The translations under genes were made by a program, and so were the position numbers. Below, piece after piece: positions 27,714 through 63,672 of a DNA stretch of 64,000 nt. This DNA comes from Allolobophora icterica (Eukaryota; Annelida; Clitellata; Crassiclitellata; Lumbricidae). The number at the start of each line of letters is the position of its first letter. The first letter of the stretch is position 1. The stretch spans positions 20,186,609 to 20,250,608 of the forward strand of contig OY744609.1 of assembly GCA_963556255.1 (NCBI GenBank), read 5' to 3'. Below the pieces are notes generated by a model that made no database searches, was not told the origin of the DNA, and was given only the letters and a program-made list of their open reading frames with translations.

Positions 27714-27837
27714 ATGTTGATGCGCAGGCGACACGGACTCTTGTTGCTGCAGCTGGAGAAAGCGATGATGTCTGTCGGGAACGACTTACCTGTCTTTGTT
27801 GGCTTTCTATTGTTATCTGCCATCAGCCAAGTTTCAG
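27714..27837 (+). CDS. Exon 1: signal peptide
   Basis: The frame from ATG 27714 gives an N-terminus with basic residues (MLMRRRHG) and then a hydrophobic segment ([18 protein letters not shown]). It ends at a strong donor TTTCAG|GTGAGT in phase 1. In-frame ATGs at 27720, 27765 and 27768 also exist. Starting at 27765 leaves a more canonical signal peptide (MMSVGND plus hydrophobic core), so the true start is uncertain. Assignment to this gene rests on phase match and the need for a secretory signal. Confidence 0.65.

Positions 27838-63672: not shown

What the first reader, a model, noticed from the sequence alone, without database searches (positions are those of the whole stretch)
27714..63672. 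SUEL lectin-CUB-sushi single-pass receptor, possibly undescribed
Seven exons with agreeing phases and GT-AG borders join to an exact 594-codon frame combining a galactose/rhamnose-binding lectin, a CUB-like domain, a CCP module, one membrane helix and a long tail. I do not recall a named family with this order; EVA-1 and latrophilins share only the lectin. Phase 1-1 domain exons indicate exon shuffling.
Basis: partly seen in the sequence, partly recalled or inferred. Interest (0 to 1): 0.8.

Follow-up and report, generated by a model that had tools for sequence, protein, structure and literature searches.

The report
Unnamed lectin-CUB membrane receptor of annelids
This is a real animal gene, probably from an annelid worm, for a cell-surface protein with a lectin-like part, a CUB domain, a short sushi-like module and one membrane helix; worm relatives share the layout but carry no specific name, and the lectin-like part seems to have lost its sugar-gripping residues.

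Summary
The seven-exon model holds: 1785 nt, 594 codons plus stop, internal borders AG..GT and in phase. Eight proteins from elsewhere carry lectin, CUB-like and short CCP-like segments in the same order, seven of the eight followed by a helix and tail. The four named ones are annelids: Ridgeia, Lamellibrachia, Capitella, Paralvinella. They map strongly onto exons 2, 3 and 4 and weakly onto exon 6. Exons 1 and 5 have good signal support; the tail exon is open but has little homology support. Pfam recognises only the SUEL lectin in the window; exon 3 is nevertheless a CUB by predicted fold and family profile. The CCP-like module keeps four cysteines and a tryptophan, without profile confirmation. 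'Galactose/rhamnose-binding' is not supported: of two residues essential for sugar binding in latrophilin-1 (PMC2430599, passages), the Lys is absent in 9 of 9 family members and the Glu in 8 of 9. Best reading: a type I receptor with a protein ligand, working like latrophilin or EVA-1. My searches found no name for this family.

The parts
27714..27837 (+). Exon 1: start codon and signal peptide (aa 1-41); ATGs at 27714, 27720, 27765 and 27768 share the donor
33791..34072 (+). Exon 2: SUEL/RBL-type lectin domain with 8 conserved cysteines, sugar-site Glu and Lys lost (aa 42-135)
   Evidence: PF02140 44.7 bits
42354..42767 (+). Exon 3: diverged CUB domain with 4 conserved cysteines (aa 136-273)
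   Evidence: fold; family profile; tblastn; no Pfam hit
46242..46394 (+). Exon 4: short CCP/sushi-like module, 4 cysteines and Trp (aa 274-324)
   Evidence: no profile match
57796..57852 (+). Exon 5: juxtamembrane linker ending Ile-Pro-Phe (aa 325-343)
58330..58417 (+). Exon 6: transmembrane helix (aa 344-372)
63006..63672 (+). Exon 7: cytoplasmic tail and stop (aa 373-594); least supported exon

Best explanation
A single-pass type I cell-surface receptor of a family so far seen in annelids. Shown: the exon chain for exons 2, 3, 4 and 6; the order lectin, CUB, CCP-like, helix in relatives; 16 conserved cysteines (8+4+4). Inferred: a signal peptide delivers it to the surface. The lectin-fold and CUB domains form the ligand-binding head and, lacking the sugar-contacting Glu and Lys, bind a protein partner, as the lectin domains of latrophilins do with teneurin-2 and of LAT-1 with TOL-1 (titles of PDB entries 6ske, 6vhh, 8suf). 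The short CCP-like module and the exon-5 linker act as a stalk. The tail of about 220 residues, with a proline-rich IPLPPPA stretch and six tyrosines, passes the signal to adaptor proteins. My odds: architecture 0.9, protein rather than sugar ligand 0.7, signalling tail 0.45.
Against: Pfam finds neither CUB nor Sushi in the window protein. The window CUB is only 16-29% identical to the eight relatives. Foldseek gave no row below E 0.001 for the exon 3 model, and PliG lysozyme-inhibitor chains rank second and sixth. Of seven relatives' tails only P0011 (11 of 500 shuffles reach its score) and P0003 (19 of 500) stand out, and the tail lacks motifs that five relatives share. GC at third positions of exon 7 is 0.55 against 0.67-0.76 in exons 2-4. 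No AATAAA or ATTAAA in 63673-64000. K120A also disturbs the latrophilin fold (PMC2430599), so loss of the Lys may mean a rebuilt loop rather than a dead site. No expression or ligand data.
Confidence: 0.62

Rival explanations
1. A membrane pattern-recognition receptor: the lectin domain still binds a glycan, perhaps bacterial, through other residues, and the CUB and CCP-like modules act as in complement-type immune proteins.
For: CUB and CCP occur together in complement proteases (structure rows for C1s and MASP); SUEL lectins are listed among pattern-recognition proteins of the annelid Olavius (PMC5117596, passages); YGR motif and eight cysteines kept in 9 of 9.
Against: Both residues shown to be needed for sugar binding are replaced in the window; Lys missing in 9 of 9. 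A single RBL domain per chain; the latrophilin paper argues one domain is too weak for carbohydrate recognition (PMC2430599, passages).
Confidence: 0.2
2. The exons are real but the full chain is partly wrong: the lectin-CUB-CCP-helix part stands, while exon 7, and perhaps the start codon, belong to another transcript or differ.
For: Weak tail homology and missing shared tail motifs; weaker coding character; other acceptors in the same frame (62916, 62775).
Against: 222 open codons are rare by chance (3 of 5000 with own composition, 0 of 5000 with intron composition) and the frame and phase fit exactly.
Confidence: 0.12
3. A decaying pseudogene or chance chain.
For: Exon 3 is strongly diverged and the introns are full of mobile elements, one recent.
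Against: All exons open, borders intact, 16 cysteines kept; the chance of a chain that matches eight relatives in order is negligible.
Confidence: 0.04

Closest known systems
Unnamed annelid proteins: Ridgeia piscesae NP493_62g04007, Lamellibrachia satsuma LSAT2_006151, Capitella teleta CAPTEDRAFT_225510, Paralvinella palmiformis LSH36_756g01028
   Same: Same order lectin, CUB-like, CCP-like, and (all but Paralvinella as predicted) one helix and a tail; shared cysteines
   Different: Window CUB is more diverged; tail differs; Capitella has extra segments on both sides of the CCP-like module. I take these to be the same family.
Latrophilins / ADGRL
   Different: No olfactomedin or seven-helix Pfam match here; CUB and CCP-like modules instead; sugar-site Glu and Lys lost
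EVA-1 / C21orf63
   Same: Single-pass receptor with RBL ectodomain and lost sugar residues (PMC2430599, passages)
   Different: EVA-1 has two RBL domains (same paper); here one RBL plus CUB plus CCP-like
CUB-sushi membrane proteins (SEZ6, CSMD) and Neto; all recalled
   Same: CUB beside sushi (SEZ6, CSMD) or CUB near a membrane helix (Neto)
   Different: Those have repeated CUB and sushi or LDLa modules and no lectin (recalled); here one of each behind a lectin

Membership tests
SUEL/RBL lectin domain (PF02140) | Pfam score above curated cut-off | tested here: met
   38.7 bits for the whole protein, 44.7 for exon 2 alone, cut-off 31.4
SUEL/RBL lectin domain (PF02140) | eight half-cystines and YGR motif | tested here: met
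   8 Cys columns, and Tyr and Arg of YGR, in 9 of 9; pattern as in PMC3269628 (passages)
SUEL/RBL lectin domain (PF02140) | DPC motif, conserved in almost all RBL domains | tested here: not met
   Window has [11 protein letters not shown]; the Asp is Gln or Asn and the Lys is Ala, Val or Thr in 9 of 9. PMC3269628 notes exceptions among true RBLs, so I read this against sugar binding rather than against the fold
functional galactose/rhamnose binder | Glu one after the first Cys and loop-2 Lys | tested here: not met
   Gln and Ala in the window; both essential in latrophilin-1 (PMC2430599, passages)
CUB domain | Pfam PF00431 above cut-off in the window exon | tested here: not met
   No hit in exon 3. 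Relatives: above cut-off in P0008; below it in P0001, P0002, P0007, P0009, P0010; none in P0003, P0006, P0011
CUB domain | CUB fold and four cysteines | tested here: met
CCP/Sushi module | Pfam or PDB profile match | tested here: not met
   0 of 9 members hit Sushi in Pfam; profile against PDB gave no sushi chain in 17 rows
CCP/Sushi module | four cysteines with Trp between third and fourth; sushi fold | tested here: inconclusive
Latrophilin | olfactomedin and seven-helix region | tested here: not met
   no such Pfam match in the joined protein
EVA-1 | two RBL domains | tested here: not met
   one PF02140 stretch
Annelid lectin-CUB-CCP-helix family | same order and 16 cysteines | tested here: met

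The most novel reading that the evidence does not exclude
An undescribed receptor family, old within annelids and perhaps wider, in which a latrophilin/EVA-1-type lectin fold gave up sugar binding and was joined to a CUB and a shortened sushi module to read a protein cue; in the window's lineage the CUB has diverged fast (16-29% identity against 43-59% for the lectin), as if following a changing partner.
Probability: 0.4. Interest if true: 0.55.

Novelty: new variant of a known kind. Interest (0 to 1): 0.4.

Why it matters
RBL-type lectin domains are described on three groups of animal membrane proteins: latrophilins, PKD1-like and EVA-1 (PMC2430599, passages; a 2008 list, and a rotifer paper, PMC8878817, mentions further unnamed membrane proteins). 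A single-pass group with CUB and CCP-like modules, kept in three annelid families but without a name, would be a clear candidate adhesion, guidance or symbiont-contact receptor, and would let one test whether loss of the sugar site is a rule for receptor-borne RBL domains.

Tried and rejected
Rejected: galactose/rhamnose binding as the default function (against PMC2430599). Rejected as below cut-off: PF23178 (ADAMTS_C) in exon 4, Psg1 and BRCA2_TR2 in the joined protein. Considered and not excluded: a longer exon 7 from acceptors 62916 or 62775, which would begin in simple ATTC-type repeats.

Led nowhere: a search of the plus strand beyond 46000 for the relatives' tail motifs gave one stray match near 59458, in a frame with a stop just before it. 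PDB profile of the CCP-like module gave only chance-like matches. Phmmer of exon 3 alone against PDB gave none. Rfam and tRNA scans of the window gave none. An error of mine (the three reverse frames were one frame) was mended.

Rows dropped: searches gave 11 distinct proteins. Eight form the family. P0006 matches exon 3 only. P0004 and P0005 have tandem SUEL-type domains and no CUB and were dropped from all family counts. Searches scored only the 7995 and 7994 candidates that shared most words; all three searches reach only relatives sharing exact words, so absence from other phyla is not shown. No DNA of a relative was compared, so no selection test was made.

Papers: ten searches listed no paper that I recognised as naming this architecture; the library is open-licence PMC only. 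I saw passages of PMC8878817, PMC3269628, PMC9334734, PMC2430599, PMC5117596, PMC12153100 and PMC3390340 (the last names Gal_Lectin, CCP and CUB domains among secreted Oikopleura house proteins; its figures are not held, so the order there was not seen). For the others I saw the search listing only.

Full report
Observation. The window is repeat-rich animal DNA. Seven exons join to 1785 nt with one terminal stop, all internal borders AG..GT, phases 0>1, four times 1-1, 1>2, 2>stop. Two exons could have been fitted by hand, so I tested them, with rules chosen after I had seen the candidates. Between the sushi-like exon and the helix exon there are 252 open phase 1-1 AG..GT segments of 30-150 nt; asking for a pyrimidine-rich acceptor (10 of 15) and a donor of at least 6 of 9 leaves one, 57796-57852. 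Looser levels leave 2 to 43, so the signals alone are not decisive. The better argument is that it ends in Ile-Pro-Phe before the Gly of the helix exon, where Ridgeia has Phe-Pro-Phe-Gly and Capitella Leu-Pro-Phe-Gly; 5 of the 252 end in Pro plus Phe, Tyr or Leu, and 3 of those 5 share its donor. For exon 1, a rule of ATG, hydrophobic run, phase 1 and donor of at least 7 of 9 leaves one donor in 8000-33700, at 27837, which scores 9 of 9.

Relatives. Three protein searches gave 11 distinct proteins. Eight have lectin, CUB-like and CCP-like segments in the same order, and seven of the eight show a helix and tail; Paralvinella P0010, as predicted, ends without a helix. The named ones are Ridgeia piscesae, Lamellibrachia satsuma, Capitella teleta and Paralvinella palmiformis, all Annelida, of three families. 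Four more (P0003, P0008, P0009, P0011) have no named source. P0006 matches exon 3 alone, 65% identical in the multiple alignment and 55% by BLASTP over 165 columns with gaps. The window is therefore most likely annelid; its own genome could not be searched (thirteen identical requests, all answered 'busy').

Mapping. tblastn of nine relatives onto the window hits exon 2 (8 of 9), exon 3 (7 of 9), exon 4 (8 of 9), exon 6 (P0008 only, E 0.31) and exon 7 (P0011 only, E 0.75), and nothing else at E up to 1 with low-complexity filtering. Identity to the window is 43-59% in the lectin, 16-29% in the CUB and 34-45% in the CCP-like module. Cysteines: 8 in the lectin, 4 in the CUB, 4 in the CCP-like module; 15 of the 16 columns are Cys in 9 of 9 and one in 8 of 9. 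N-glycosylation motifs at residues 53, 188 and 300 are each present in 7 of 9.

Sugar site. The latrophilin-1 RBL paper (PMC2430599, passages) reports that Glu42, one after the first Cys, and Lys120 in loop 2 contact rhamnose; that all substitutions tried at these two dramatically reduced or abolished binding; and that receptor-borne RBL domains often lack them. Its authors argue for non-carbohydrate ligands. Here the Glu is Gln and the Lys is Ala (alignment). In nine family members the Lys is never present and the Glu only in P0011. The Asp of the DPC motif is Gln or Asn in all nine; Tyr and Arg of YGR are kept in all nine. The domain keeps its scaffold and, by this test, has lost its sugar pocket. 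The same paper says Lys120 also holds loop 2 in shape, so that loop may be rebuilt here.

Tail. The 222 codons of exon 7 are open while the two other forward frames hold 9 and 10 stops and the reverse frames 7, 7 and 6; chance openness is 3 of 5000 with its own composition and 0 of 5000 with that of the preceding intron. GC at third positions is 0.55 against 0.67-0.76 in exons 2-4. Of seven relatives' tails, two stand out (P0011: 11 of 500 shuffles reach the score; P0003: 19 of 500) and five do not (154 to 477 of 500). A Tyr-(Glu/Arg)-(Ser/Arg)-Pro motif occurs in P0001, P0002, P0007, P0008 and P0009, and GYxHV-type motifs in P0002 and P0009 with DYAHI in P0008; the window's tail has neither. 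The tail is plausible, not shown.

Mechanism. Shown: the gene, its order, its lectin and CUB fold classes and its relatives. Inferred: surface receptor, protein ligand, stalk role of the CCP-like module and exon 5, adaptor-binding tail. Adhesion or guidance is my first guess because EVA-1 is a Slit co-receptor (PMC2430599) and latrophilins bind teneurins (PDB titles). Immune or symbiont recognition is the main rival, as SUEL lectins are counted among pattern-recognition proteins in the annelid Olavius (PMC5117596, passages).

Known or new. Source names are 'hypothetical protein', 'CUB domain-containing protein' and 'SUEL-type lectin domain-'. Ten paper searches listed nothing that I recognised as naming this order. 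The review of RBL architectures PMC3269628 has no occurrence of CUB in its held main text, and in PMC2430599 the only occurrence is a DOI. The parts are known; the combination seems undescribed in what I could search: a new variant of a known kind.

Noticed in passing
window 34657-41616 (intron 2): LTR retroelement on the minus strand with 477-nt LTRs 99.2% identical (34657-35133, 41140-41616) and an open 1823-residue frame 35248-40719 in which integrase (residues 964-1135) precedes reverse transcriptase and RNase H (1448-1801), the reverse of the usual Ty3/gypsy order; Gmr1-like elements have this order (recalled).
   Followed up: partly
window 6213-15319: A second minus-strand element of the same integrase-before-RT type, split by a plus-strand LINE with endonuclease and RT domains (frame 9388-12699).
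   Followed up: partly
window 4049-4348: hAT transposase C-terminal dimerisation fragment on the minus strand, PF05699 37.9 bits.
   Followed up: no
window 16595-16879 and 24060-24413: Minus-strand fragments that look like Tc1/mariner transposase by eye; no Pfam hit at E 0.01.
   Followed up: no
exon 3, window 42354-42767: The CUB of this gene, like that of P0006 (65% identical to it), has drifted far from the other members (16-29%) while the lectin stays at 43-59%; cause unknown.
   Followed up: partly
window 58418-58442: Reading through the exon 6 donor meets a TAG at 58440 after a few codons, so an intron-retaining form would be a receptor with almost no tail.
   Followed up: no
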